64,000 nucleotides of DNA, from positions 25,427 to 89,426 of IMG/VR virus record IMGVR_UViG_3300043446_005051; one strand, 5' to 3'. How positions within the stretch are numbered: position 1 is the first letter of the stretch; each line of letters begins with the position of its first letter. A model generated the notes under the pieces. That model searched no databases and was not told the DNA's origin. It worked only from the letters and a program-made list of their open reading frames with translations. Below are positions 6,165 to 61,847 of the stretch, piece by piece. A program made the translations under genes and the position numbers. The stretch comes from a virus.

Positions 6165-6683
6165 TCAAACAAGAGAAAGCTCGGGTTCGTCGGAAGTTAC
6201 ATACTCAAACTCATCCTCCAGATCGAGTTCATCATTCAGGTCAAATTCATTTGAATCGTCCAGAACAAAATCAGAATCGTCTTGAAGAAGGTCGTCTTCA
6301 TCTAGTTCAGGCATCAGTACAGTTACAGGAACTTCTACTTCGGTCTCAGGTGCAGAGACTTCTTCCTCTTCTTCAGCCTCATTCCACTCCACTTCCTTCA
6401 GGGGAGAGATTGGAGAGATTGCCTGAGGTTGCTCATTCAGGAAGAACCCCTTAGCAGTTTCCTTTGCTTCTCGCAGCAGGGAATCGGGGCTGTCAATTGC
6501 ATCCGCAGTATTGACCATAAAGGGTTCCTTTTCAGGTACAGAATCATTGATGACCCACCAGTTAGTTTCCTTCGAGTCATCATTTACTTCCTTCATAATG
6601 TACCCAACGAATTCTCCATCACGAGTAATTCCATAGTACCCGGCTTGAATACGGGGAAACTTGATAACAGGTGCTTTTGCCAT
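6165..6683 (-). CDS. acidic-tailed hypothetical protein (172 aa)
   Basis: The N-terminal module (KFPRIQAGYYGI, FVGYIMKE) is shared with the 2777-3181 protein. The C-terminal 80 residues are extremely acidic (stretches of EEEE and DDSDFVLDDSNEFD). The start at 6683 is preferred because a good ribosome-binding site (GGAGG, 8 bases upstream) precedes that ATG, while the longer frame starts inside the leader. It has its own promoter-like element (6750-6755) and terminator, suggesting high independent expression. Acidic tails of this type can act as DNA mimics; that is inference only. Confidence 0.7.
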   Translation of the reverse strand: MAKAPVIKFPRIQAGYYGITRDGEFVGYIMKEVNDDSKETNWWVINDSVPEKEPFMVNTADAIDSPDSLLREAKETAKGFFLNEQPQAISPISPLKEVEWNEAEEEEEVSAPETEVEVPVTVLMPELDEDDLLQDDSDFVLDDSNEFDLNDELDLEDEFEYVTSDEPELSLV

Positions 6684-6749
6684 AATAAAAACCTCCAAAG
6701 AAAAGAATACGACGGTTGAGTGTTGAAAGGTCTCCCTCTCACCTCAGTC

Positions 6750-6755
6750 ATTGTA
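6750..6755 (-). promoter_or_regulatory. extended -10 type promoter motif
   Basis: On the minus strand GCTACAATGACTGAGGT contains TACAAT about 65 bases upstream of the 6683 start codon. The same 17-base motif, with one difference, precedes the E2-like gene at 10313. No good -35 is visible, so it may depend on an activator. Confidence 0.45.
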
Positions 6756-6783
6756 GCGCAGACTCAGAAAAGCAATCAGGATG

Positions 6784-6806
6784 GTGGACAGTTGAAAAAG
6801 CGTCCT
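6784..6806 (-). repeat. dispersed hairpin (GGACAGT type)
   Basis: gtggacagttgaaaaagcgtcc forms an imperfect stem (GGAC/GTCC) with an A-rich loop. Member of the intergenic hairpin family, upstream of the 6165 unit and downstream of the tRNA pair. Confidence 0.4.
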
Positions 6807-6829
6807 CTCTGTAATGCTATTTGCATTAA

Positions 6830-6861
6830 AAAACTCCTATTCAAATTTGAATAGGAGTTTT
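6830..6861 (-). terminator. perfect 32-bp palindromic terminator
   Basis: AAAACTCCTATTCAAA is followed immediately by its exact reverse complement, giving a 16-bp arm palindrome ending in TTTT on both strands. It lies just after the two-tRNA unit (6881-7047, minus) and is well placed to end it. Confidence 0.7.
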
Positions 6862-6880
6862 AAGTGTTATTCAGTTTTAG

Positions 6881-6951
6881 TAGGGACACTGGGGATTGAA
6901 CCCAGACTAACCCGTTATAAGCAGGCCGCTCTACCATTAAGCTATGCCCCC
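6881..6951 (-). tRNA. tRNA-Ile (anticodon UAU)
   Basis: Cloverleaf readable on the minus strand: acceptor GGGGGCA/TGTCCCT (with G-U pairs), anticodon loop CTTATAA, T arm CTGGG-TTCAATC-CCCAG. The anticodon UAU reads AUA, a codon common in this A+T-rich phage and rare in many hosts. Confidence 0.8.
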
Positions 6952-6975
6952 ACATAATTTGCTCTAAAAGAGCAA

Positions 6976-7047
6976 AGCGATAGACGTGATTTGAACACGC
7001 AACCGTCTGGATGGAAGCCAGAAGCTCTACCGTTGAGCTACTATCGC
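6976..7047 (-). tRNA. tRNA-Gly (anticodon UCC)
   Basis: Acceptor GCGATAG/CTATCGC is perfect. The anticodon stem TCTGG/CCAGA encloses CTTCCAT, and the T arm is CGTG-TTCAAAT-CACG. Reads GGA. Paired with tRNA-Ile 25 bases downstream. Confidence 0.88.
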
Positions 7048-7085
7048 ATAATTAAAGGAATACTAATGTATTCCTTTGTATATAT

Positions 7086-7244
7086 CTAAACTAGAGAAGG
7101 TATTTCATACTCCACTAGTCTAGAATCGTCCTCGTCATCAAAGTAACCAAGTTCAAGATTCACAAGGTCTTCATAATCAACACCTAGAAAGCGAGTCGCG
7201 AAATCTTCATAGTCATCGTGAAGAAGATAAGAAAATTCAGACAT
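7086..7244 (-). CDS. small acidic protein (52 aa)
   Basis: Starts MSEFSYLLHDDYEDFATRFL. Very acidic (pI low; LELGYFDDEDDSR). A strong ribosome-binding site (AGGAGG, about 10 bases before ATG) and a consensus promoter 37-65 bases upstream make it one of the best-supported small genes here. First gene of the unit containing tRNA-Gly and tRNA-Ile. Function unknown. Confidence 0.7.
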   Translation of the reverse strand: MSEFSYLLHDDYEDFATRFLGVDYEDLVNLELGYFDDEDDSRLVEYEIPSLV

Positions 7245-7280
7245 TTGATCAAGTCCTCCTGTTGTTTCTTGAACGTATGT

Positions 7281-7309
7281 ATGTTACCAGCTGTGAAACT
7301 TATTGTCAA
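7281..7309 (-). promoter_or_regulatory. sigma70-type promoter
   Basis: Minus strand TTGACA (7304-7309), 17-bp spacer, TAACAT (7281-7286) with an extended TGG before the -10. Drives the 52-aa gene and the two tRNAs. Confidence 0.65.
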
Positions 7310-7316
7310 CTATGGA

Positions 7317-7338
7317 GTGCCAGTACAAAAAGTGACAC
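7317..7338 (-). repeat. dispersed hairpin (GTGCCAGT type)
   Basis: gtgccagtacaaaaagtgacac, an imperfect stem with an A-rich loop, just after the stop of the 7348-7518 gene and just before the promoter at 7281-7309. Confidence 0.4.
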
Positions 7339-7347
7339 TTGAAATAA

Positions 7348-7518
7348 TTAAACATCAAACACTTTCTCTGAAAGAATCAAATCATCAATGAGTTGAATTT
7401 CCCAGTTTTCCATATGTTCCATTGTTTGGATGAATTGATAGGTCTGAGTCCAGGCTTGACCTGCATCGAGCAGACATTCAAGGTTTTCCATAGATGAATA
7501 ATCAAAATGAAAAGACAT
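7348..7518 (-). CDS. small hypothetical protein (56 aa)
   Basis: Starts MSFHFDYSSMENLECLLDAG and continues with two amphipathic helices ending LILSEKVFDV. A T4-type late promoter lies 23 bases upstream, so expression late in infection is likely. No family recognised. Confidence 0.55.
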   Translation of the reverse strand: MSFHFDYSSMENLECLLDAGQAWTQTYQFIQTMEHMENWEIQLIDDLILSEKVFDV

Positions 7519-8072: not shown

Positions 8073-8420
8073 TCAGTTTGAATTCAATGTACGAGTGATT
8101 CCAAGCTCCTCTAGACGGGCATCCACTCGATTATTGATGAATGCCTCAATATCATTATCAATAGTCTCCATAATGGAAAAAGCAACATCTCGAACTAGAT
8201 TTGAGCCATATTCCTGGCGAATGAATTGAATAAATCGAGTCTTAAACGCATAATCATTATACGCTAGGTCTTTTACAATGTTGAATAATTGGTCAGAATT
8301 AATCGATTTCAGTAGCTCGTCTTTACGGGTTTCTACTTCTTCATATAGGTAATTTAGCCCTGTAATTAGATTATCAATCTGAAGTAGATTGTCGTTGATA
8401 ACGTGAGTATCTTGAGACAT
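8073..8420 (-). CDS. hypothetical helical protein next to the ubiquitin-like cassette (115 aa)
   Basis: All-helical by pattern: DNLITGLNYLYEEVETRKDE, LFNIVKDLAYNDYAFKTRF, MKTIDN-type helices and a final ARLEELGITRTL. No known domain is recognised. It is the last minus-strand gene after the E1-like gene, with its own promoter-like motif (TGCTACACT near 8448) and terminal hairpin. It could be a substrate, adaptor or unrelated protein; adjacency is the only link. Confidence 0.6.
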   Translation of the reverse strand: MSQDTHVINDNLLQIDNLITGLNYLYEEVETRKDELLKSINSDQLFNIVKDLAYNDYAFKTRFIQFIRQEYGSNLVRDVAFSIMETIDNDIEAFINNRVDARLEELGITRTLNSN

Positions 8421-8481
8421 AAATGATGTTTGATTGAGACTTGTACAGTGTAGCAGAGAAGCTGGAAGGGAGAATGATTAT

Positions 8482-8514: not shown

Positions 8515-9222
8515 TTAAGAGACGCTAGTCTTCATATTACGAAGGTTGAAGAACATTGAACACTGAGATGGGTCCAGTGTTCCATCGAGAAGGTTTTGAA
8601 TGACCATCAGAGTCATACTTGCTGCAAAGAAGTTTGCTGAAATAAGTTGAGGACGACTCGGTGCATTTAATGCACAACTTCCCGAATGTGGAATACTATC
8701 TTGAGGCTGGTCAATATTTGGATATGCAATAGTTGGATTCATACCAACATTCACATTATCAATTCGGCCCCACCAGAGAGTTTGACCTCGAACTTCTTCA
8801 AGGCCATCGCTATTACCTGGAGTAATATAAAAGAAGTCCTTTCCTTGACGAGTATTATTGATTGCATCAATAATCGCTTTACGTGTTGCGTCATTATCTA
8901 CCGAACAGATAATGACAGGACGCTCTGAATTACGAATCATCGGAATGAAAGTAGATGCAGTGATGAACTGGTCTTTGCATTCAACATCAGTTAGTCCCTG
9001 ATAAGAGCAGAAGTCCTTCATTGCTCGTGCTTTATTCATATTGATTTGAGATTCACCCACAATTTGTCGAGTGAGATTTGAACTCTCGAACGAATCACCA
9101 TCAATAAAAGTTACCTTTGCTCCTTGAGTGTTCGGATGATATGCAACGAGTCGAGCAAGTGGAGCAGCGAGATGCCCACCAGTTCCACCCACGCCAATCA
9201 CAAAGAAATCAGAGAAAAACAT
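8515..9222 (-). CDS. ThiF/E1-like ubiquitin-activating adenylyltransferase
   Basis: ThiF-fold protein of 235 aa. The Rossmann nucleotide loop is GVGGTGG (residues 10-16). The hallmark DGDSFESSNLTRQ that follows (metal and ATP contacts, plus the NLxRQ arginine that senses phosphate) is intact, as is a later CSVDNDATRKAI segment of the same fold. A cysteine in SGSCALNAPSRPQL is the best candidate for a thioester or active-site Cys. E1 proteins adenylate the C-terminal Gly of a ubiquitin-like partner. The start at 9222 is chosen for its AGGAGG site. Its length and lack of zinc CxxC pairs fit the ThiF protein of PRTRC cassettes better than MoeB. The neighbours encode Ubl, E2-like and JAB proteins. 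Confidence 0.85.
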   Translation of the reverse strand: MFFSDFFVIGVGGTGGHLAAPLARLVAYHPNTQGAKVTFIDGDSFESSNLTRQIVGESQINMNKARAMKDFCSYQGLTDVECKDQFITASTFIPMIRNSERPVIICSVDNDATRKAIIDAINNTRQGKDFFYITPGNSDGLEEVRGQTLWWGRIDNVNVGMNPTIAYPNIDQPQDSIPHSGSCALNAPSRPQLISANFFAASMTLMVIQNLLDGTLDPSQCSMFFNLRNMKTSVS

Positions 9223-9270
9223 AAACCTCCTGTTGGAACGAATCAATGGTAGCAGACGAAGACCGTCAAA

Positions 9271-9305
9271 AACAAAAAGGTGGACAGCTCAAAAACCGTC
9301 CACCT
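9271..9305 (-). terminator. terminator of the E2-like gene
   Basis: AGGTGGACGG/CTGTCCACCT stem (one G-U pair) with loop TTTTTGAG, followed on the minus strand by TTTTTGTTTTT. A canonical intrinsic terminator and the clearest member of the GGACAGT family. Confidence 0.75.
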
Positions 9306-9315
9306 ACATACAGAA

Positions 9316-10284
9316 TTAAATTTGACCAACTAGATAGTTCTCATCCCTAGATACAAACCATTTTCTATTTACTGCATCTGGAACTGTTTCATAGCCATAA
9401 TAAGTACTTCCATTTTTTTCAATTTGAACCTCCTTTGCAGGAATAATCATAATATGTGGAGAATCCTCAAGAGGTTTATATCCAGCTGAAAGAAGAGTAA
9501 AAAATGCTGGAACATCATATTCAGCGTGTACTATGATTATACTATCAATATCTTCTCCATCACATAGAAAATGTTCAGATTCTAGAAGAGAGAATTCATC
9601 ACTATTTTTTAGATACCTTAGAGTGTCACAATTGGTTTCAAACGTACCTAGAGGTAGAAGGTCATTATTAAATTCACTATTAAAGTAGGTTTGAACTACA
9701 CTTCTGAGATTAGTTGGAGCATTGTTGGACCCCCAGCAAATTCCACCTACTTCATATGCATCCCCAAATACATTGGAAGCCATAAGCAATCGAGTTGCAT
9801 AAATTTTATTGTCCAGAGTATATCCTGAACGAAGATATGCTTTATCTGAATCTAAAGACAGATAAGTTCTAAATCTCCCATTTCTAAATGAAAGATTAAC
9901 TTGAAATACCATATCTGCCACATTCATATGAATTGATACATCTTCGGCATTATTCCCCTCTGGGCATTCTTGACCTGTATAACCTTCTTCATACACCCAA
10001 CAATGATTGTCCTCCCCCCCACTCACATCTGTCCAATCAATATCATCATCTTCATCTTTTCGATTGGAAAGGAATGAATAACAATTTCGATAGCATCCAT
10101 CACAAAATTCATTGTAAAATCCATCTGAATCCATTTCAATATCTTGATGAATATCTTTATAGTTGTCTGGCATCCAAGCATTGATTTTTAGAGAATCTTC
10201 TACTTTATAACTAAAGAATTTTGCTCCTTTTGGTAGAAGATGAACATTTACTTTGGGGGGAACAGTTTGAAAAATTACAGACAT
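9316..10284 (-). CDS. E2-like protein of a ubiquitin-like system (PRTRC protein B-like)
   Basis: About 322 aa from the chosen start. The region EVGGICWGSNNAPTNLRS followed by QTYFNSEFNNDL resembles the conserved core of PRTRC protein B / prokaryotic E2-like families (a G-x-C-x-G strand-loop with the key Cys, then P, then an F-x-S-x-F segment). The Cys of GGICWG is the candidate thioester residue. A Cys-rich acidic stretch (CDGCYRNC, DNHCWVYEE, QECPEG) in the N-terminal third could bind metal and is not typical of plain E2s. The longer frame (to 10359) runs into the upstream terminator, and an ATG at 10314 sits inside a -10-like motif, so I take 10284; there is no clear ribosome-binding site. 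The E2 assignment is by pattern and context and needs profile confirmation. Confidence 0.6.
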   Translation of the reverse strand: MSVIFQTVPPKVNVHLLPKGAKFFSYKVEDSLKINAWMPDNYKDIHQDIEMDSDGFYNEFCDGCYRNCYSFLSNRKDEDDDIDWTDVSGGEDNHCWVYEEGYTGQECPEGNNAEDVSIHMNVADMVFQVNLSFRNGRFRTYLSLDSDKAYLRSGYTLDNKIYATRLLMASNVFGDAYEVGGICWGSNNAPTNLRSVVQTYFNSEFNNDLLPLGTFETNCDTLRYLKNSDEFSLLESEHFLCDGEDIDSIIIVHAEYDVPAFFTLLSAGYKPLEDSPHIMIIPAKEVQIEKNGSTYYGYETVPDAVNRKWFVSRDENYLVGQI

Positions 10285-10312
10285 TTTGGATGAATTCTGT
10301 GTAACTTCAGTC

Positions 10313-10318
10313 ATTGTA
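10313..10318 (-). promoter_or_regulatory. extended -10 type promoter motif
   Basis: TACAAT within GCTACAATGACTGAAGT on the minus strand, 29 bases before the E2-like start. Its near-identical twin at 6750-6755 lies in a non-coding leader, which supports a promoter role. The -35 is weak. Confidence 0.45.
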
Positions 10319-10339
10319 GCAGGAAGGGGCGGTGTGGAT

Positions 10340-10370
10340 AAAAAAAGGGGACACCTCAAAAAGTGTCCCC
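10340..10370 (-). terminator. terminator of the JAB gene
   Basis: GGGGACAC/GTGTCCCC perfect 8-bp stem, loop TTTTTGAG, then seven T on the minus strand. Lies 14 bases after the JAB stop codon. Confidence 0.8.
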
Positions 10371-10383
10371 CGATATTACTATA

Positions 10384-11466
10384 TCAACTAGTAGCAAAAG
10401 CAGATTCATCAATCTCTTTAGCCGCACTAGTTAGTACATCATAGAGATGGAAGATTTTGTTCAGGTCTTCTGAATTCTGATTAATATAGTCATTAATCAG
10501 GTCTTCAATCTCCCATAGTTTAATAGTTTTATTCCCTTCTACATTCTCGGTATTTAGAGTGCCATTCTCGTTAAAAAAGAATGGGTCATCCATATATTGA
10601 TTGTATCCATCATAATCATTATACTTATAGGTTGCATATTTCTCTAGCCACTTATCATACGAATCTGAATCCCTATGGGATTTACCTCCCTTATACTTTA
10701 CAGGAGAATATTTAATTACAGTTGTAGGAGTACTATAATCCACATATTTTAGAACATCTGGATGAAATGTAACTTCTGAAATTGGAGTGGCATCAATAAG
10801 TTCATCATATTTCAGAAGAAAGCGACGACCATTTCCAACTACGGAAGCTGCAATTGTATATACATTTTTATTTACGTCAATACTTCCTACAACTAGATGA
10901 ATACCAGGGTCTCCTAGCTCATACTTATCGTCAATTCCTGAGAAGAAAGATGGCATAGTATTATGCGAATGACTAGACCCAACAGGAATCCACCCAGAAG
11001 GAGGATAAGATTCAACAACCTCTCCAGTTTCAATGTCAATGGATTCATCAAAGCTATCAATTCGTACAGCGGCTCCAGATACCTTTTGTTTGGGTACAAG
11101 AATCCTATATTTTGATGAATCTTCATCCGAACGAAGAATCCGAATAGAAACTTCAACTTCGTTACTTACTTTATTTACAAAGTGAAAACATAGTTTCACC
11201 CAACGAGACCAAAGTTCTGCTGGAATTTTATGAATATCAGAATTTAGTTCAAAATGTTCAAGATGCTCTTTTGTAATTTCTACATTTGCATCTGGGTCTG
11301 GACAAGAACGAATATACTTACCCCAAGGCCCTTGATACACCTCAAAACATCCATCCAAGGAAGTGCGAAGAATTGAAGGAGGAGTATTCACTAGTTCTTC
11401 TTCAATCTTGATTTCATTAATTTCAAGAGTATCTTCTTCGACCATAGTTTGAATAGTTTCTGACAT
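10384..11466 (-). CDS. JAB/JAMM metallopeptidase (deubiquitinase-like, PRTRC protein A-like)
   Basis: A 360-aa protein with the complete JAMM zinc motif HSHNTMPSFFSGID (H166, H168, S176, D179: H-x-H-x7-S-x2-D), followed by GIHLVVGSID as in JAB-domain proteins of PRTRC cassettes. The upstream acidic residue of the site is probably one of the Glu in SNEVEVSIRI (about residue 103-105). JAB peptidases cleave after the C-terminal Gly of ubiquitin-like proteins, maturing or removing them. The N-terminal 100 and C-terminal 140 residues (KGGKSHRDSDSYDKWLEKY and beyond) are extra and unassigned. The start at 11466 (MSETIQTMVEE) is chosen because the longer frame begins inside the Ubl terminator. The gene lies between Ubl and E2-like genes. 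Confidence 0.85.
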   Translation of the reverse strand: MSETIQTMVEEDTLEINEIKIEEELVNTPPSILRTSLDGCFEVYQGPWGKYIRSCPDPDANVEITKEHLEHFELNSDIHKIPAELWSRWVKLCFHFVNKVSNEVEVSIRILRSDEDSSKYRILVPKQKVSGAAVRIDSFDESIDIETGEVVESYPPSGWIPVGSSHSHNTMPSFFSGIDDKYELGDPGIHLVVGSIDVNKNVYTIAASVVGNGRRFLLKYDELIDATPISEVTFHPDVLKYVDYSTPTTVIKYSPVKYKGGKSHRDSDSYDKWLEKYATYKYNDYDGYNQYMDDPFFFNENGTLNTENVEGNKTIKLWEIEDLINDYINQNSEDLNKIFHLYDVLTSAAKEIDESAFATS

Positions 11467-11512
11467 AATAAAAAATAATAAAAGAACTTGGGTATAGAAA
11501 ATAATTTGTATG

Positions 11513-11547
11513 AAAAAACCCTCAAAGGTTATGTAAACCAATGAGGG
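11513..11547 (-). terminator. terminator of the Ubl gene
   Basis: CCCTCATTGGTT/AACCTTTGAGGG stem (internal mismatch) with loop TACAT, followed by six T on the minus strand, 22 bases after the Ubl stop. It separates the small Ubl gene from the JAB gene, so read-through would set the Ubl:JAB ratio. Confidence 0.75.
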
Positions 11548-11568
11548 ATTATCTTAGTTAGTTAGGAG

Positions 11569-11829
11569 TCAGCCCTTTTGCTCGCTGTTAGTTGCAGCAC
11601 GGTAAGATTCACCTGCACGCACAACCTGAGTAGAAGGAACAGCTTCGCCGTTGAGAACGTAACGATTGATACGAGTTACATCGCCCAGTGAGCTAGCATA
11701 CTCAGCGTAAAGCTGGGAAACGGTCTTACCAGTGAATTGAGCAGAGTTTAGTGAAACACTCTCTTCGTTGAAGTAGAGAGTAACAGGGCTCTCGGTGTCA
11801 GCTTGACGGATTTGGGAGAAGAAAGACAT
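11569..11829 (-). CDS. ubiquitin-like protein with C-terminal glycine (PRTRC protein C-like)
   Basis: 86 aa. The predicted order is strand (VTLYFNEESVSL), helix (TVSQLYAEYASSLGD), strand (RYVLNGEAV), strand (GESYRAATNS), which is the beta-grasp layout of PRTRC protein C and other small Ubls. NGEAVPSTQVVRAGE corresponds to the conserved 'dn G.....ll..Gd' turn. The protein ends EQKG, so the final glycine is exposed without processing, ready for adenylation by the E1-like enzyme at 8515. GC-richer and codon-optimised compared with its neighbours, with its own terminator: consistent with high expression. Confidence 0.75.
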   Translation of the reverse strand: MSFFSQIRQADTESPVTLYFNEESVSLNSAQFTGKTVSQLYAEYASSLGDVTRINRYVLNGEAVPSTQVVRAGESYRAATNSEQKG

Positions 11830-15484: not shown

Positions 15485-15573
15485 CATAATAGACCTCCAG
15501 GTTTGTGCATCGTTGAGAGGCATAGGAGGGGTGGGACTTAAACGACGTTTGGACCGCCGTTGCCCATAAAAGT

Positions 15574-33269: not shown

Positions 33270-34061
33270 TCAGTTCACCTCTAGATTAAATTCAGAATAT
33301 AATTTTACATTATCGTGTCCAATAACATTTATAGGATTTTCTGATTCTTTTGATAATATTTTACGAGTGTTATGTAACCCCTTTAGCCCCCATTCGTCAT
33401 CCTTTTCTTGCCCACAAGTATTTTCAATACTATTGAAATTATGTTCATATGAATTAATATTTAAAAATAGATATAAATTTTTTAATTCTTCTTCTGGATT
33501 ATTTACAAGGGCATCATAATTGACTAAGTGAACAAATTCAGGATATTTTGTAATTCCAATTACTAAACTTTCATAAGAAGGTGATACACATTGCTTCCAT
33601 ATAAATTCAACCCTATTATCTACATTCAATTCTAAATTATTATTTCTTAAATAATTATCAATAAAATTCAATGTATGTTCTGATTTATTGATTAAAGTAA
33701 TGTAGGATGATATGATATCTGGAATAGGACGATATACTGCTATTATTTTAGGGGCATTGTCTATAAACTTTCTAATCGCATCTATATTTTGAGGCCAAGT
33801 TCGGTTTTTATCGAAAATATAAGTTTCATTTCTATGATTATAAAAATTAGATGATATGGACTTATAGATGTTATAGGATACTTTCTCAAAGTCAAAGCTG
33901 TATTGAATATTAAAATGGTTTAATTTAGCGTCAATATCAAAAAGTAAATCTCCTAATGGTGAAGTTGGAGTTACATATAATAATGGATTTTGATTTAGAA
34001 TACTTCCCAGTATAGTTGAACCACTTCTTGGTAATCCAGATAAAAAAAATAATTTCTTCAT
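33270..34061 (-). CDS. sulfotransferase-family protein
   Basis: 263 aa. The 5'-phosphosulfate loop SGLPRSGSTILGSIL (residues 8-22) and the 3'-phosphate segment VYRPIPDIISSYITL are both present and correctly spaced for the PAPS-dependent sulfotransferase fold. CGQEKDDEWGLKGLH near the end is a family-like C-terminal region. Such enzymes transfer sulfate to sugars or proteins in the cytoplasm. Here the gene lies within the tail-fibre cluster, so it may modify host surface polysaccharide or a fibre protein; the substrate is inference. Confidence 0.78.
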   Translation of the reverse strand: MKKLFFLSGLPRSGSTILGSILNQNPLLYVTPTSPLGDLLFDIDAKLNHFNIQYSFDFEKVSYNIYKSISSNFYNHRNETYIFDKNRTWPQNIDAIRKFIDNAPKIIAVYRPIPDIISSYITLINKSEHTLNFIDNYLRNNNLELNVDNRVEFIWKQCVSPSYESLVIGITKYPEFVHLVNYDALVNNPEEELKNLYLFLNINSYEHNFNSIENTCGQEKDDEWGLKGLHNTRKILSKESENPINVIGHDNVKLYSEFNLEVN

Positions 34062-34081: not shown

Positions 34082-35254
34082 TTAATTTTCGTATGTAATC
34101 GCTAAATTATGAGCTCCGCCGCAAGAAATATCTTTCCAATTAGTTTTTGTACTTATTTGAGTAAATATAGTCGTACCTCCAGTTCCCACTAATGATGTCA
34201 ATTGACGACTTCCATTGGAACCAGTTCCCCATAAAGTTCCATCTGTTTTAATTGCTAATGTATAGTTGCTTGAATTGCTGGAGTTTACCCTTACTCTTTT
34301 CCAATTATTAGATGACCCTACTTGAATAAATTCAGTAGTTACCCCCACTGATGGTCCTAAGCCTAGTTGACCATCAGTGTTTGACCCTCTTGCCCACAAG
34401 GTTCCGTCTGTCTTAACTGCCATCGTATAGTCTATACAACTTATTTGTTTCCAATTTGTTTCATTCCCAATTTGTACTGGACTTGTGGAAATTGAATTTG
34501 CAAAAATGTCACCTTCCCTAGCCAGATTACCCCATCTATATAAACTTCCATCCGTTTTAATAGCATATGCATAACTAATACCAGGCTCTACCGTTTTCCA
34601 ATCATTAGATACTCCAATCTGTGTAAATATAGATGTTGTGTCACTACCTGGTATATTACGCGAGCCTGTTATCCACAATGTCCCGTCCTTTTTAATTGCT
34701 ATTGTCGTTCTGAAACCAGTTTTAGCTTCTCTCCACTCACTACTTAACCCAACTTGAGTTGGTTTATTTGTAGAAGCTATGCCCACCAATCCTAATTGTG
34801 AGAAACTATTATTTCCCCACACCCAAAGAGTTCCATCATATTTAATTGCTGCTGCATGGTCTGGAGTATCATTTGTAAAATCTGATGAATAATAACTTAT
34901 TGTTTTCCAATTTATATTATTATCAATTTTAGTTGGAGTTGATATTGCTGAGCCAGCATAACCTAATCCCAATTGTCCTAAGCTGTTAGCTCCCCACACC
35001 CATAAAGTGCCATCTGACTTTATGGTCATTGAACCTCTGGCTGAAGTTTCAACTGCTTTCCAATTAATTCCAATTCCAACATTAGTGTTTATAATATTAA
35101 AATTAGTATTGGAATTTATACCATTTCCAAGAACTCCATTGGATGCATTTCCCCATACATATAATCCACCTTCTTGAAAATATTCAGATGGTACGAAAAC
35201 ATCATCAAAGTTATATACTACTCCATTTTCGGTGAAGTTATAAAATGTTGGCAT
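34082..35254 (-). CDS. RCC1-repeat beta-propeller protein (1 of 3)
   Basis: 390 aa made of about seven blade repeats of roughly 50 residues with the signature 'AIKTDGTLW.WG.N..GQLG.G......PTQIG...NWK'. Examples: IKSDGTLWVWGANSLGQLGL, IKYDGTLWVWGNNSFSQLGL and VKTDGTLWARGSNTDGQLGL. The N-terminus (MPTFYNFTENGVVYNFDDVF) is unique and probably attaches it to the tail. RCC1 propellers are protein-interaction scaffolds; a phage copy in the fibre region is most simply an adhesin or distal tail decoration. Confidence 0.78.
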   Translation of the reverse strand: MPTFYNFTENGVVYNFDDVFVPSEYFQEGGLYVWGNASNGVLGNGINSNTNFNIINTNVGIGINWKAVETSARGSMTIKSDGTLWVWGANSLGQLGLGYAGSAISTPTKIDNNINWKTISYYSSDFTNDTPDHAAAIKYDGTLWVWGNNSFSQLGLVGIASTNKPTQVGLSSEWREAKTGFRTTIAIKKDGTLWITGSRNIPGSDTTSIFTQIGVSNDWKTVEPGISYAYAIKTDGSLYRWGNLAREGDIFANSISTSPVQIGNETNWKQISCIDYTMAVKTDGTLWARGSNTDGQLGLGPSVGVTTEFIQVGSSNNWKRVRVNSSNSSNYTLAIKTDGTLWGTGSNGSRQLTSLVGTGGTTIFTQISTKTNWKDISCGGAHNLAITYEN

Positions 35255-35259
35255 TTCTC

Positions 35260-35622
35260 TTAAGGTTCAATATAAACTACAGGTGCATTCATCTCTTTAC
35301 TCCAATTCTCCAACCAACTTTTAACAGATGAATTCATCTTTGAATTATTTATTGAAATTGCTTTAAGAAATTGTACATCATTATTTCTTTCAACCGATAC
35401 TAGAACATTACATTTGTCTGGTCTCATTTCTTCAGGTAATAGCTTTTGACTCCAAGCACATTGATAATTTACACATACATTAGGACGAACCTTGTGTATT
35501 TTACATCCATTACACCCTTTAAATTTACAAGATTGTCCATTTCCAAATTCCCATCCGTAAGAACTTCCAATTAGCCAAGTACAACATGCTGTACAGTCGC
35601 CACAAGACCTAAAATAATTCAT
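35260..35622 (-). CDS. YkgJ-type cysteine-cluster protein
   Basis: 120 aa with the YkgJ family pattern: CGDCTACCTW near the N-terminus, CKFKGCNGCKIHKVRP, then PNVCVNYQCAWS. Eight or more cysteines could bind zinc or an iron-sulfur cluster. Family members are poorly understood; some appear beside protein-modifying enzymes. It separates two RCC1 genes in the fibre cluster, so it may modify or help mature them (inference). Confidence 0.72.
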   Translation of the reverse strand: MNYFRSCGDCTACCTWLIGSSYGWEFGNGQSCKFKGCNGCKIHKVRPNVCVNYQCAWSQKLLPEEMRPDKCNVLVSVERNNDVQFLKAISINNSKMNSSVKSWLENWSKEMNAPVVYIEP

Positions 35623-35628
35623 AATATA

Positions 35629-36828
35629 TTAAATAAAATCTAAAGAAAGAATTCCTACACTATGTCCCTCTCCCGGACTTATTTGCTTCCAATTTTTATT
35701 TGCTCCTATCTGAACTGGAGACGGTTGACTAGTGTTATTTCCTATACCAAGTTGTCCGTTAATATTGTAACCCCACCCCCATATAGTGCCATCAGTTTTA
35801 ATTGCCATAGTATAATAGTTTCCACATTCTATATTTTTCCAATTTGATGAAATTCCAACTTTAGTTGGAGTAGTTTTAGTTGAATTATCACCAACTCCAA
35901 GCTGACCAAAATTATTTCTACCCCAAGCCCATAATGAACCATCTGTTTTGATAGCAATTGTGTGTTCTTTTCCTGTACTTATTTTATACCAATCGCTAGT
36001 TAAATTTCCAATTTGAGTTGGGGTACCTACAGTGGCTGTGTTACCCCTTCCTAGTTGATAAAAATTATTAAGACCCCATCCCCATAAAGTTCCATCCGCT
36101 TTTATTGCAATGGAATATAAGTCCCCACAAGAAATTGATTTCCAATCAAAGTTTATTAAATCTATTTGCCTAGGGCTATTGGTACTTGCGTAACCAGTTA
36201 TACCTAGGGCACTAGATTGATTATTTCCCCACCCCCATAAAGACCCATCAGTTTTAATTGCTAAGGTATGACTATTTCCAGCTCCAACTAACCTCCAATT
36301 TGAAGAAATTCCAACCTGAGTTGGAGAAATTTTATCAGTATTATTAGATATTCCGAGTTGGCCATTAGTATTCCTACCCCAAGACCATAATGTACCATCA
36401 GTTTTTATGGCAAATGATGAGTCTGAATATGTTGAAATCTGTAACCAATTTGAAGCGATACCCACTTGTATTGGAGTTGATTGAATTAAACTAGTATTAG
36501 TAGTGTTTATGCCTAGCTTTCCATATGAGTTTATACCCCAAGTCCATAAAGTTCCATCTTTTTTAATCGCCAAATTATGGCTGTTTGAAGAGCCAACTAT
36601 TTTCCAAGTATACCCACTATTAACTTGAGTTGGAGTATTTGTAGCTGCTAATCCTACAACTCCTAACTGCCCTTGTGTATTACTACCCCAAGACCATAAT
36701 TGAGGAGTCACTCCTAATTGAGGTAATAAATCTGGATAAACGGAAATTAGATAATCTTTAGTTATTAATTTAGTACCTAAATCAATTCCACCACTATCTA
36801 TAAAATTTGTTTTTGGATTGTATACCAT
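35629..36828 (-). CDS. RCC1-repeat beta-propeller protein (2 of 3)
   Basis: 399 aa, about seven regular repeats: IKKDGTLWTWGINSYGKLGI, IKTDGTLWSWGRNTNGQLGI, IKADGTLWGWGLNNFYQLGR, IKTDGSLWAWGRNNFGQLGV and so on. The N-terminal 45 residues (IDLGTKLITKDYLISVYPDL) resemble the short head of other phage minor tail proteins, with a 'YLI..Y' segment also found in copy 3. The most regular of the three propellers. Confidence 0.8.
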   Translation of the reverse strand: MVYNPKTNFIDSGGIDLGTKLITKDYLISVYPDLLPQLGVTPQLWSWGSNTQGQLGVVGLAATNTPTQVNSGYTWKIVGSSNSHNLAIKKDGTLWTWGINSYGKLGINTTNTSLIQSTPIQVGIASNWLQISTYSDSSFAIKTDGTLWSWGRNTNGQLGISNNTDKISPTQVGISSNWRLVGAGNSHTLAIKTDGSLWGWGNNQSSALGITGYASTNSPRQIDLINFDWKSISCGDLYSIAIKADGTLWGWGLNNFYQLGRGNTATVGTPTQIGNLTSDWYKISTGKEHTIAIKTDGSLWAWGRNNFGQLGVGDNSTKTTPTKVGISSNWKNIECGNYYTMAIKTDGTIWGWGYNINGQLGIGNNTSQPSPVQIGANKNWKQISPGEGHSVGILSLDFI

Positions 36829-36834
36829 TTATCT

Positions 36835-37488
36835 TCAAACTATTTCTTCTTGAGGTTTAAGATTTATATTATATACTTCATCTATAGTTAAACATGAATC
36901 AATTTCTTGATGTTTTGAGTGTTCCCAATCAAAAACGCTTTGAACATAATTATCAACTTCTGATATTACATATTGTAACTCTTGACTTGTGATTTCCAAC
37001 CAGGTATTTCTAAACTTGAAATTATGAAGACCAGGTGAAGCTGATAACTTAGATGCTAGTAATTGTCGCTCATCTCGATTTGTAGATATTTCTACTTGGG
37101 AACCGTTAATAGTTACCTCAATAATTGTACTCTCTTTCTGTTTTCTTATTAAAGTAGCATCTTTCTTTTTTTCTAATTTTACTTCCTCTAGTGTTTTTGC
37201 AATTAAAGGATATGTAAATAAAACTTTAATTGGAATACCATTTTGTCGTTCTATAGCCCAAGTAAAATCACCAATATTATAATACCTAGAATCAAATGGC
37301 TCTGTAATTTTTTCTATTGGTAATAAATGGGTTAATCCATCTGAAAAATGGATAGGCATATCATTATAACTCTGAGGTTCAACCACATCTGAAAGTTCTA
37401 AATCTTCTAATTCTGAATTTATCATTCTCATATTATAAGAGAATGGACCGAGAATAAGTTGATTATTATGTATTAATGCTATTTCCAT
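36835..37488 (-). CDS. DUF4376-like tail fibre protein (217 aa)
   Basis: N-terminal half contains the proline/aspartate-rich 'EPFDSRYYNIGDFTWAIERQ' linker region typical of phage tail proteins. The C-terminal 110 residues match the DUF4376 pattern: charged helix (LEEVKLEKKKDATLIRKQKE), VTINGSQVEISTNRDERQLL, FRNTWLEITSQELQYVISEV. DUF4376 is a short module at the end of tail fibres and may bind another fibre subunit. Preceded by a late promoter at 37500. Confidence 0.62.
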   Translation of the reverse strand: MEIALIHNNQLILGPFSYNMRMINSELEDLELSDVVEPQSYNDMPIHFSDGLTHLLPIEKITEPFDSRYYNIGDFTWAIERQNGIPIKVLFTYPLIAKTLEEVKLEKKKDATLIRKQKESTIIEVTINGSQVEISTNRDERQLLASKLSASPGLHNFKFRNTWLEITSQELQYVISEVDNYVQSVFDWEHSKHQEIDSCLTIDEVYNINLKPQEEIV

Positions 37489-37499
37489 ATTTTTTTAAG

Positions 37500-37507
37500 T
37501 ATTTATA
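37500..37507 (-). promoter_or_regulatory. T4-type late promoter
   Basis: TATAAATA on the minus strand, 12 bases before the DUF4376-like gene and just after the stop codon of the third RCC1 gene. Confidence 0.55.
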
Positions 37508-38764
37508 TTAAATATTTGGTGAAACGCCTAATGTGAGCCCAGCTGTAATAGAAACTCGGTTCTCTACATATTTCCAATTAGATGAACCTTTTGTTATGTT
37601 GGTAAACTCTTGAAATTCTTCATTGGTATCTGTTGAAGTTAATTGAAAATCTTCATTATTTCCACTTGCCCATAAAGACCCATCAGTTTTTATGGCAAAT
37701 GTATTACTATGAGAACAATCAACGAATTTCCAATCTACCCCAGAACCAACCCTCGTTGGAACCACAGCAGAAGATATTCCTACAATTCCAAGTTGAGATC
37801 TTGAATTATCTCCCCAAGTCCATAAACTTCCATCTTTTTTAATTGCAGCACTATGAGTCCTTCCACTTGAACACAGTTTCCATTGGTCGGAGGTACCTAT
37901 TTGAGTTGGAATATATCTATCAGTGTATGGGTCTTCTACTCCCAGTCCAAGTTGTCCTATTCCAATAGGGTCACCAAGAACTTGGCCCTGATCAGTAACT
38001 GTAATTCCGGTATTATTTCCCCATGTCCATAGAGTTCCATCTTCTTTAATTGCAGTTACAACATGAACTCCAGTACTTACAGTCTTCCATCCTCTATTCG
38101 TCTGGCCGACTGCCACATAAACTTCAGTAGGAGATGTGACAATTCTATTCACATTTGTGTCATTTATACCTAACCTTCCATATGAATTTCTTCCCCAAGT
38201 CCATAAACTTCCATCTATTTTAATAGCGGCATTAAATGCACCGGAGGGACTATTAATTTTCCAATCTGAACCAACTCCTACTTTAGTGAGAGTTGTAATG
38301 CCAGATGTTGATGTATACCCCAGCCCCAATTGAGCAGAGTCATTTCTTCCACAAGTCCACAAAGTACCATCATCTCTAATTACAGTGGTATGATATCCTC
38401 CAGATGATAACTTAACCCAATAAGAACCAATTCCCACTTGAGTTGGTGTATTTCTATTTGAATAATCCTTCGTTCCGAGTTGACCATGTGAGTTATCCCC
38501 CCAGGTCCACAAACTTCCATCTGTTTTAATAGCGGTAACAAAATCATTTGAAACTGAAATTTTCTTCCATTGATTGGAATCAACTGATACTAAAGTTGGA
38601 GTATTTAATGTTAAATTGGAGTCGGCGTTTCCAATGCCCAGTTGACCATCTGTATTCCTACCCCAAGTCAACACTTGACTTCCAACATAATCATCGACCA
38701 ATTGATACTCAGTTACATAATATTTTTCCAGATCTCCTTCTGGAGAAAAAAATTGATTAGACAT
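37508..38764 (-). CDS. RCC1-repeat beta-propeller protein (3 of 3)
   Basis: 418 aa. Repeats include IKTDGSLWTWGDNSHGQLGT, IRDDGTLWTCGRNDSAQLGL, IKEDGTLWTWGNNTGITVTD (with an insertion) and IKKDGSLWTWGDNSRSQLGI. The head MSNQFFSPEGDLEKYYVTEY, followed by QLVDDYVGSQ, is the phage-specific part. Overlaps the S74 fibre gene upstream by 8 bases, so it is coupled to fibre expression. Confidence 0.8.
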   Translation of the reverse strand: MSNQFFSPEGDLEKYYVTEYQLVDDYVGSQVLTWGRNTDGQLGIGNADSNLTLNTPTLVSVDSNQWKKISVSNDFVTAIKTDGSLWTWGDNSHGQLGTKDYSNRNTPTQVGIGSYWVKLSSGGYHTTVIRDDGTLWTCGRNDSAQLGLGYTSTSGITTLTKVGVGSDWKINSPSGAFNAAIKIDGSLWTWGRNSYGRLGINDTNVNRIVTSPTEVYVAVGQTNRGWKTVSTGVHVVTAIKEDGTLWTWGNNTGITVTDQGQVLGDPIGIGQLGLGVEDPYTDRYIPTQIGTSDQWKLCSSGRTHSAAIKKDGSLWTWGDNSRSQLGIVGISSAVVPTRVGSGVDWKFVDCSHSNTFAIKTDGSLWASGNNEDFQLTSTDTNEEFQEFTNITKGSSNWKYVENRVSITAGLTLGVSPNI

Positions 38765-60287: not shown

Positions 60288-61847
60288 ATGGCAGCACCAA
60301 ATACACCGAGTACTCCAACAGTTCAGGTAGTTAATTCAAAATTCTACGAATCAACTAAAGATGGAGTAAAGACTACATATCAATTATTTTATGATCCTAA
60401 ATCGGGGGATTATTGGGCATCTTCAACTCCTCTAACTGACCCAAAATCAAGAGAAAATGCTATTTTAGTGAATGGGGAATTTACTAAAAAAGCAGTTGAA
60501 GATAGTTTGTTTTTTAAAGATAAAAACCCAAATACACCAGAAGATGTATCGATTTCATTGTCAAGGCAAGCTAGAGACCAAGTTAAAGGGGCTTTTGCTG
60601 CAGTAGGTGGAACTGCTGGAGGAAATCAAGTAAATCCTTCGGTTAATTCTAACCAATTTAAAGCTCAAGGTGCTAACGGTCCAGATATCTTTCAACCTAT
60701 TAGAGATTTTGCTTCTAATCTACCTGGAATAGATGACGTAGCAAATCTGATAAAAAATTTTGGCACCCCAAATATAGCAGATTTTGACAGTGCTAATATG
60801 AGGGATTTATTTAAAGAACCATTATATTACCCACTAGACCTTAAATCTACAAGACAAGATATTCTGGTTATAACTCAATATATGTATAAATCTCCATATA
60901 ATGAATTATTTAAAGGTGAATTAAATAATTCATCTCCTGGGACTATTGTAAATGGAGCTCCAAGACTAAGTGCATTAAGAGACCCAATTCAATCTGTAAC
61001 TCTTCCTATTCCAAATAATGTATCAGATAGTAATGCTACAGGATGGGGAGATGATAAAATGGGAACTACTGCAATGGCGGCAGCTGGAAATATGCCAAAA
61101 GCACTTACGGCGGCAGCTATTAGTCAATTAGCTAAGGCTGGTGGTCAATTTATTCCAGGTCTTAATCTACAAGGAGCTGCACTTAAATACTTAACAGACC
61201 TTATCGGCAAAAATCCAGGCGCTATTTATAATTTGTTAGAACCTAGTTCACTCGTAAATCCTAGTTTAGGTGCTGCGATTCAATCGCTAGTCCTTCAAAA
61301 CATTGGGTTTACGGATGTTACCCCAGAAACAATTTTATCTAGAGGGTATGGAGTAATTACTAACTCTAATGTTGAACTTCTATTTACTGGACCTACTTTA
61401 AGAGGTTTTCAATTTGGATATATAATGTCTCCTAGAAGTCAAGGAGAAGCTACAATGTGTAGAAAAATTCTTCGATTTTTTAAGCAAGGAATGGCACCCA
61501 AAAAAAATAAGGCATCTAGTACTGGATACGGGGGACCTTCTTTTTTCCTTGCAACTCCAAATGTATTTAAATTAGAATATAAATCATATGATTCTAGTGG
61601 AAAGCCTATTAAAATAAAAGGTCTAAACAGATTTAAAATATGTGCATTGACTAATTTACAGACAAGCTATTCTGATGGTCAGTGGGCGGCATATGATGAA
61701 GGTCAACCTGCTCGTATGCAAATGAACTTAGCATTTAAAGAACTTGAGCCAGTTTATGAAAGTGACTATCAAGAGACTAAATCAAGTACTCTACCTGCAA
61801 GATATGATGATTTAGGCCCAGTTTTACCCGACGAAATAGGTTATTAA
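60288..61847 (+). CDS. 48: baseplate tail tube cap gp48
   Basis: 519 aa, longer than T4 gp48 (364), as usual in cyanophages. Starts MAAPNTPSTPTVQVVNSKFY. Conserved parts: KEPLYYPLDLKSTRQDILVI, GYIMSPRSQGEATMCRKILR, FKQGMAPKK and VFKLEYKSYD, the tube-like fold that caps the baseplate and starts tube growth. The middle Ala/Gly-rich segment (MAAAGNMPKALTAAAISQLA) is typical of cyanophage versions. Confidence 0.78.
   Translation: MAAPNTPSTPTVQVVNSKFYESTKDGVKTTYQLFYDPKSGDYWASSTPLTDPKSRENAILVNGEFTKKAVEDSLFFKDKNPNTPEDVSISLSRQARDQVKGAFAAVGGTAGGNQVNPSVNSNQFKAQGANGPDIFQPIRDFASNLPGIDDVANLIKNFGTPNIADFDSANMRDLFKEPLYYPLDLKSTRQDILVITQYMYKSPYNELFKGELNNSSPGTIVNGAPRLSALRDPIQSVTLPIPNNVSDSNATGWGDDKMGTTAMAAAGNMPKALTAAAISQLAKAGGQFIPGLNLQGAALKYLTDLIGKNPGAIYNLLEPSSLVNPSLGAAIQSLVLQNIGFTDVTPETILSRGYGVITNSNVELLFTGPTLRGFQFGYIMSPRSQGEATMCRKILRFFKQGMAPKKNKASSTGYGGPSFFLATPNVFKLEYKSYDSSGKPIKIKGLNRFKICALTNLQTSYSDGQWAAYDEGQPARMQMNLAFKELEPVYESDYQETKSSTLPARYDDLGPVLPDEIGY

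What the first reader, a model, noticed from the sequence alone, without database searches (positions are those of the whole stretch)
8515..11829. Complete phage-borne ubiquitin-like conjugation cassette (Ubl, JAB, E2-like, E1-like)
Four adjacent minus-strand genes encode a beta-grasp Ubl ending in Gly, a JAB/JAMM peptidase with an intact H-x-H-x7-S-x2-D site, an E2-like protein with a G-x-C-x-G core and a ThiF/E1 enzyme with an intact ATP site. The set matches PRTRC cassettes (proteins C, A, B and ThiF) of bacterial plasmids and mobile elements, but here it is inside a T4-like phage and no ParB-like or other PRTRC partner is visible in the window. A lytic phage with its own conjugation and removal enzymes could tag host or virion proteins, or counter bacterial Ubl-based defences (Bil, CBASS Cap2/Cap3).
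Basis: partly seen in the sequence, partly recalled or inferred. Interest (0 to 1): 0.92.

Follow-up and report, generated by a model that had tools for sequence, protein, structure and literature searches.

The report
Cyanophage-borne ubiquitin-like tagging gene set
A T4-like virus of (probably) cyanobacteria carries a complete set of genes for attaching a small ubiquitin-like protein to other proteins and taking it off again; the set is conserved in at least 17 related large-phage contigs and resembles an untested plasmid system, so its targets in infected cells are an open, testable question.

Summary
Window 8515-11829 (-) encodes Ubl, JAB peptidase, E2-like protein and compact ThiF/E1; a small helical gene (8073-8420) completes a five-gene core. 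The host record is an 89 kb T4-like phage fragment. Seventeen distinct IMG/VR contigs carry relatives, mostly in the order Ubl-JAB-E2-ThiF-helical; three large ones (224-284 kb) carry psbA, so the host is probably a cyanobacterium. Catalytic positions are kept in every copy readable: ThiF Cys183 18/18, E2 Cys193 18/18, JAB E/H/H/S/D 17/17. All 15 Ubls found end in a conserved Lys-Gly, five with a 1-2 residue tail, as a peptidase-matured Ubl should. Profile comparison links JAB, E2 and ThiF only to their PRTRC counterparts A, B and ThiF, with every mismatched pairing null; the Ubl matches PRTRC-C by terminus only and is beta-grasp by prediction. No window protein reaches a PRTRC cut-off, no PRTRC ParB was found, and the E2 has a four-Cys insertion and C-terminal extension absent from plasmid E2s. 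I read it as a distinct viral branch of the predicted '6d'/PRTRC conjugation operons: probably a reversible, non-degradative protein-tagging system used during infection. Substrates, activity and purpose are untested, and E2 fold searches gave no hit.

The parts
11569..11829 (-). Ubl: 86-aa beta-grasp ubiquitin-like protein ending ...SEQKG; C-terminal Gly86 codon at 11572-11574
   Evidence: ORF; conserved Lys-Gly terminus in all 15 phage Ubls found; AF2 model with beta-beta-alpha-beta-beta order, mean pLDDT 77; best solved folds SUMO/ubiquitin
10384..11466 (-). JAB/JAMM metallopeptidase (360 aa); H166-x-H168-x7-S176-x2-D179 encoded at 10930-10971, Glu105 invariant
   Evidence: Pfam Prok-JAB 2.7e-4; PRTRC_A 0.0013; profile vs PRTRC-A E=1e-17; active site intact in 17/17 phage copies
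9316..10284 (-). E2-like protein (Prok-E2_D/PRTRC-B related); candidate catalytic Cys193 (numbered from the upstream ATG 10314) at 9736-9738; extra Cys71, 74, 105, 117 insertion and C-terminal extension
   Evidence: profile vs PRTRC-B E=1e-7 with null controls; relative L056 E2 reaches the Pfam Prok-E2_D cut-off, 25.9 vs 25 bits; Cys193 in 18/18
8515..9222 (-). Compact E1-like ThiF enzyme (235 aa); ATP loop G10-G15 at 9178-9195; candidate catalytic Cys183 at 8674-8676
   Evidence: Pfam ThiF 3.8e-11; TIGR03736 5e-14, 52.2 bits, below cut-off 144.75; profile vs PRTRC-ThiF E=2e-29; Cys183 in 18/18
8073..8420 (-). 115-aa probably helical protein, fifth gene of the cassette (motif NDxLxxxDNLxxxLxYLxEE)
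   Evidence: Directly downstream of ThiF, or separated from it only by an inserted endonuclease-like ORF, in L001-L003, L012/L018, L014, L015, L017, L042, L045, L053; longer proteins with a similar N-terminal motif in L048, L049, L051, L052
11898..11907 (-). CTGCTACNNT extended -10-like box upstream of Ubl
   Evidence: 7 in 64 kb vs 0.84 expected; 4 of 7 precede cassette genes
10313..10322 (-). CTGCTACNNT box upstream of E2, overlapping the first ATG
   Evidence: related boxes upstream of E2 in L003, L014, L018
9246..9255 (-). CTGCTACNNT box upstream of ThiF
8447..8456 (-). CTGCTACNNT box upstream of the helical gene
10346..10371 (-). terminator-like hairpin between JAB and E2
9278..9305 (-). 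terminator-like hairpin between E2 and ThiF

Best explanation
A five-gene, phage-encoded Ubl conjugation/deconjugation system of the '6d'/PRTRC kind. Inferred mechanism: the JAB peptidase trims the Ubl to ...KG where a tail is present. The ThiF E1 adenylates the terminal Gly and forms a thioester at Cys183. The Ubl passes to Cys193 of the E2-like protein, which attaches it to a lysine of one or a few target proteins, possibly guided by its four-Cys module. JAB reverses the linkage. The tag most likely changes assembly or activity of phage or host proteins during infection rather than marking them for degradation. Shown: genes, conservation of order and catalytic residues, the Ubl terminus and relationship to PRTRC A, B and ThiF. 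Inferred: every catalytic step, the targets and the benefit to the phage.
For: Conserved gene order in many contigs. Catalytic residues kept across divergent relatives. All 15 Ubls carry Lys-Gly near the end, 5 of them with 1-2 residue tails (VY, LG, S, F, RH), mirroring plasmid PRTRC-C proteins, of which one in the set ends in SKG, one has a 2-residue tail and seven a long one. Matched-only profile relationships with controls. Conserved E2 and E1 cysteines argue for thioester relay. No sulfurtransferase or thiamine/molybdopterin gene was seen among the flanking genes examined. The ThiF clade is separate and phage-only in the sampled tree, apart from one long, unsure Woesearchaeota row beside it.
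Against: No biochemical data. E2 structure searches gave no E2 hit in PDB or BFVD, so E2 identity rests on profile homology to a family itself assigned by prediction (PMC1779556). Ubl fold confidence is moderate. No Ubl was found near JAB-E2-ThiF in L056/L057. Individually promoted and terminated genes in the window are not a tight operon.
Confidence: 0.75

Rival explanations
1. Sulfur-carrier system: ThiF makes a Ubl thiocarboxylate for a biosynthetic or tRNA-thiolation reaction and JAB trims the carrier, with no protein conjugation.
For: ThiF, Ubl and JAB also co-occur in sulfur-assimilation operons (PMC1779556); ThiF-family profiles match weakly.
Against: An E2-like partner with an invariant Cys in 18/18 copies; best ThiF match is PRTRC_ThiF, not ThiF/MoeB; no sulfur-metabolism gene recognised among the flanking genes examined.
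Confidence: 0.1
2. Virion assembly helper: the system modifies the phage's own tail or capsid proteins (a special case of the main reading).
For: Phage Ubl/JAB pairs exist in lambdoid tail operons (PMC1779556); in Salmonella phage Arash the E2-like and ThiF-like genes are annotated 'structural protein', basis unknown.
Against: In the window the cassette lies among small genes and tRNAs, not beside the tail genes.
Confidence: 0.3
3. Defence or exclusion weapon: tagging of competing phages' structural proteins, as Bil is understood to do (own knowledge), used here by a phage or plasmid against rivals.
For: Same component list as Bil (Ubl, E1, E2, JAB; own knowledge); related cassettes lie on plasmids and phages.
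Against: No PADLOC match for Ubl or E2, and for JAB only one weak hit in one member (E 0.036); ThiF matches E1-E2 fusions and BilD only weakly.
Confidence: 0.2
4. Counter-defence: the JAB removes host Ubl tags (CBASS, Bil) and the other genes are decoys or accessory.
For: JAB active site intact.
Against: A pure deconjugase would not need a conserved E1, E2 and dedicated Ubl; the catalytic residues of all are conserved.
Confidence: 0.1

Closest known systems
PRTRC system proteins A, B, C and ThiF (TIGR03735-03738; operon type 6d of Iyer et al. 2006, PMC1779556)
   Same: Ubl with Lys-Gly terminus, JAB, E2-like, ThiF and a helical protein; profile links for A, B and ThiF; shared motifs P-x-Q and HSH...S..D in JAB, ICWG and FN-x-[DH] in E2, SCA...Q....N in ThiF
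   Different: Window proteins score below PRTRC curated cut-offs; no ParB found; gene order Ubl-JAB-E2-ThiF-helical instead of Ubl-helical-E2-JAB-ThiF (L054 has E2 before JAB); E2 with Cys insertion and C-terminal extension; separate ThiF clade
PRTRC-like genes of Bacillus phage vB_BauM_KLEB27-3, Salmonella phage Arash and Vibrio phage D69
   Same: Phage-borne E2-like, JAB and ThiF genes in a row
   Different: No Ubl recognised next to them; order E2-JAB-ThiF; KLEB27-3 and Arash ThiF fall on the other side of the tree from the cyanophage clade
Bil anti-phage system (BilA-D)
   Same: Same four activities (own knowledge)
   Different: No Bil model matches Ubl, JAB or E2; ThiF to BilD only 1.7e-5
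CBASS type II Cap2/Cap3
   Same: E1/E2/JAB chemistry (own knowledge)
   Different: E1 and E2 separate rather than fused; no nucleotidyltransferase recognised in the cassette
Lambda tail assembly TAPI/TAPK
   Same: Phage Ubl with Gly terminus and JAB (PMC1779556)
   Different: TAPI/TAPK have no E1 or E2; here the cassette is away from tail genes

Membership tests
PRTRC system / operon type 6d | ThiF-family E1 of PRTRC type (TIGR03736) | tested here: inconclusive
   5e-14 but 52.2 bits vs cut-off 144.75; profile-profile 2e-29 with shared Cys-Gln-Asn spacing
PRTRC system / operon type 6d | JAB protein of PRTRC-A type with intact JAMM site | tested here: met
   profile-profile 1e-17; E, P-x-Q, HSH, S, D shared; single-sequence TIGR03735 score 18.3 below cut-off 101.8
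PRTRC system / operon type 6d | E2-like protein of Prok-E2_D/PRTRC-B type with conserved Cys | tested here: met
   profile-profile 1e-7 with null controls; relative L056 passes the Pfam cut-off; Cys in 18/18
PRTRC system / operon type 6d | conserved His downstream of the E2 Cys | tested here: inconclusive
   FN-x-[H/D] position is Asp in the phages and also in several plasmid members; a further His287 is invariant only in the closer relatives
PRTRC system / operon type 6d | Ubl of PRTRC-C type with conserved terminal Gly | tested here: inconclusive
   Lys-Gly terminus met and beta-grasp predicted, but no sequence match to PRTRC-C
PRTRC system / operon type 6d | ParB-related protein (TIGR03734) | tested here: not met
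   0 of 9 records, though most are fragments
PRTRC system / operon type 6d | helical partner protein | tested here: inconclusive
   A small, probably helical gene is conserved after ThiF; homology to the plasmid helical protein not tested
Bil system | BilA-D homologs | tested here: not met
   No PADLOC Bil match for Ubl, JAB or E2; weak BilD only for ThiF
E2 (UBC) fold | E2 fold by structure | tested here: inconclusive
   AF2 pLDDT 76.7, pTM 0.79; no PDB or BFVD match with E <= 0.001
Functional Ubl conjugation | thioester and isopeptide formation | not testable with these tools
   needs biochemistry

The most novel reading that the evidence does not exclude
Large cyanophages run their own dedicated ubiquitin-like signalling pathway, with E1, E2 (carrying a built-in zinc-binding, E3-like module), Ubl and deconjugase, that reprogrammes or protects specific proteins of infected cyanobacteria or of the virion: a virus-encoded conjugation branch evolving separately from its plasmid relatives.
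Probability: 0.4. Interest if true: 0.88.

Novelty: new variant of a known kind. Interest (0 to 1): 0.72.

Why it matters
Complete E1-E2-Ubl-JAB sets in bacteria are known mostly as defence systems (own knowledge) or as untested plasmid operons. Finding a conserved, phage-only branch whose relatives include psbA-bearing large cyanophages makes the function of the PRTRC/6d kind approachable: infection gives a defined time window and a small proteome in which to look for conjugates. It also bears on where prokaryotic ubiquitin-like conjugation evolved and moved.

Tried and rejected
Single-sequence Pfam, PHROGs and PADLOC scans of Ubl and E2 gave nothing useful. Nucleotide search of the cassette against sequenced phages found nothing. 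hhalign of Ubl vs PRTRC-C failed. Foldseek of the E2 model gave no match with E <= 0.001 in PDB or BFVD. The genome-contig scan brought only distant ThiF relatives, including a Woesearchaeota MAG operon JAB-ThiF-Ubl whose Ubl-like protein ends in SKG. No paper in the held library naming PRTRC also holds 'ubiquitin-like', and the listed results of searches for phage or cyanophage Ubl cassettes showed no title or abstract reporting one. A search for NCLDV capsid was uninformative because its controls were silent. Bil, CBASS, TAPI/TAPK and ThiS/MoaD membership were considered and rejected as filed above.
Full report
What was checked. The four ORFs are present on the minus strand. Start codons need correction: JAB at 11466, E2 probably at 10284 and ThiF at 9222. 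The window is bases 25427-89426 of an 89,426-base virus record. A baseplate protein of the window (60288-61847) matches the gp48 tail-tube cap of T4-like cyanophages. Ten tRNA genes lie in the window.

Conservation. Scans of IMG/VR with ThiF, JAB and E2 brought relatives on 17 distinct contigs besides the window, counting near-identical records once (L012/L018 and L042/L043/L044/L047). The order Ubl-JAB-E2-ThiF is complete in L001, L003, L018, L014, L015, L017, L042, L048, L049, L051, L052 and L053. L002 and L045 are cut at a contig end. L054 (370 kb record) has two Ubl copies and E2 before JAB. L056 and L057 have JAB-E2-ThiF with no Ubl found beside them. A fifth, probably helical gene follows ThiF. 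psbA-type genes occur in the 284, 258 and 224 kb records, but not in the window's own record, and L003 carries a cyanobacterial-type tmRNA, so a cyanobacterial host is likely, not shown.

Catalytic anatomy. In hmmalign mappings, ThiF ATP-site residues and Cys183 are kept in 18/18 copies (one Lys for Arg at position 24), E2 Cys193 in 18/18, and JAB Glu105, His166, His168, Ser176 and Asp179 in 17/17. Some distant sequences were read with N-terminal read-through, and the three intron-split JAB genes were read as two ORFs joined, so lengths there are not exact. All 15 Ubls found carry a Lys-Gly; ten end exactly there and five have tails VY, LG, S, F or RH. Plasmid PRTRC-C proteins show the same pattern, from no tail (L030) to two residues (L034) to a long tail in seven others.

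Relationship to known systems. hhalign of phage against PRTRC alignments gave JAB-A 1e-17, E2-B 1e-7 and ThiF-ThiF 2e-29, while the other pairings (best of them JAB with ThiF, E 0.01, probability 4%), shuffled E2 columns (maximum score 19.0 vs 57.9) and reversed E2 were null. L056's E2 passes the Pfam Prok-E2_D cut-off. Curated NCBIfam cut-offs are not reached by the window proteins. No PRTRC ParB was found in nine records. This matches operon type 6d of Iyer et al. 2006, which was itself a prediction (PMC1779556). The ThiF tree puts the 18 phage rows on one side of a branch (93/92) from the 12 plasmid rows; a long Woesearchaeota row sits beside them and its place is unsure.

Differences. The phage E2s have a C-x2-C ... 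C ... C insertion in most copies, plus a C-terminal extension, not seen in the plasmid set; zinc binding is inferred. The AF2 Ubl model has beta-grasp order, pLDDT 77, pTM 0.61, with SUMO and ubiquitin as best folds. The E2 model gave no E2 match.

Expression. CTGCTACNNT boxes are enriched (7 vs 0.84 expected) and four precede Ubl, E2, ThiF and the helical gene, with terminator-like hairpins between genes. This suggests separately controlled genes in this phage. JAB has no such box, and in L015 and L017 E2 directly abuts JAB.

Interpretation. Gene content, the E1-E2 cysteines and the Ubl terminus favour conjugation over sulfur transfer. With no proteasome partner recognised, a non-degradative tag is the likeliest use. 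Choice among own-virion modification, host-protein modification, rival exclusion and counter-defence cannot be made from sequence.

Noticed in passing
L015:4022-4262; L053:6405-6645; L057:7212-7485: Group I introns (Rfam RF00028) interrupt the JAB gene at or very near the catalytic HSH motif in three relatives; the L057 insert also holds a 290-aa ORF (6499-7371).
   Followed up: partly
L003:2600-2858: Phage-encoded tmRNA of cyanobacterial type, 104.8 bits, overlapped by a permuted-tmRNA match.
   Followed up: no
L001:4839-5726 and 8827-9825; L003:8792-9601: Related repeat-bearing ORFs, homing-endonuclease-like by eye, inserted between cassette genes; in L003 a 31-residue piece matching the ThiF C-terminus follows at 9717-9809.
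   Followed up: no
window 15493-15529 (-): abiF RNA match (RF03085, 50.2 bits, E 3.5e-6) next to tRNA-Arg, with no AbiF-sized protein seen beside it.
   Followed up: partly
window 34082-38764: Three proteins with RCC1-like repeats by eye, separated by other ORFs, and a sulfotransferase-like ORF at 33270-34061.
   Followed up: no
L054:2112-4080: Two near-identical Ubl genes flanking a 331-aa, probably coiled-coil protein in a 370 kb record.
   Followed up: no
OQ632216 (L037) and OZ195729 (L038): Salmonella phage Arash and Vibrio phage D69 carry PRTRC-like E2, JAB and ThiF genes; Arash E2-like and ThiF-like are annotated 'structural protein'.
   Followed up: partly
upstream of Ubl in window, L001, L003, L015, L017, L018: Shared leader GTCGGTG (GTTGGTG in L014) about 50-75 bases before the Ubl start, possibly a structured 5' leader.
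   Followed up: no
L058 (Woesearchaeota MAG): JAB-ThiF-Ubl-like operon whose Ubl-like protein ends in SKG.
   Followed up: no
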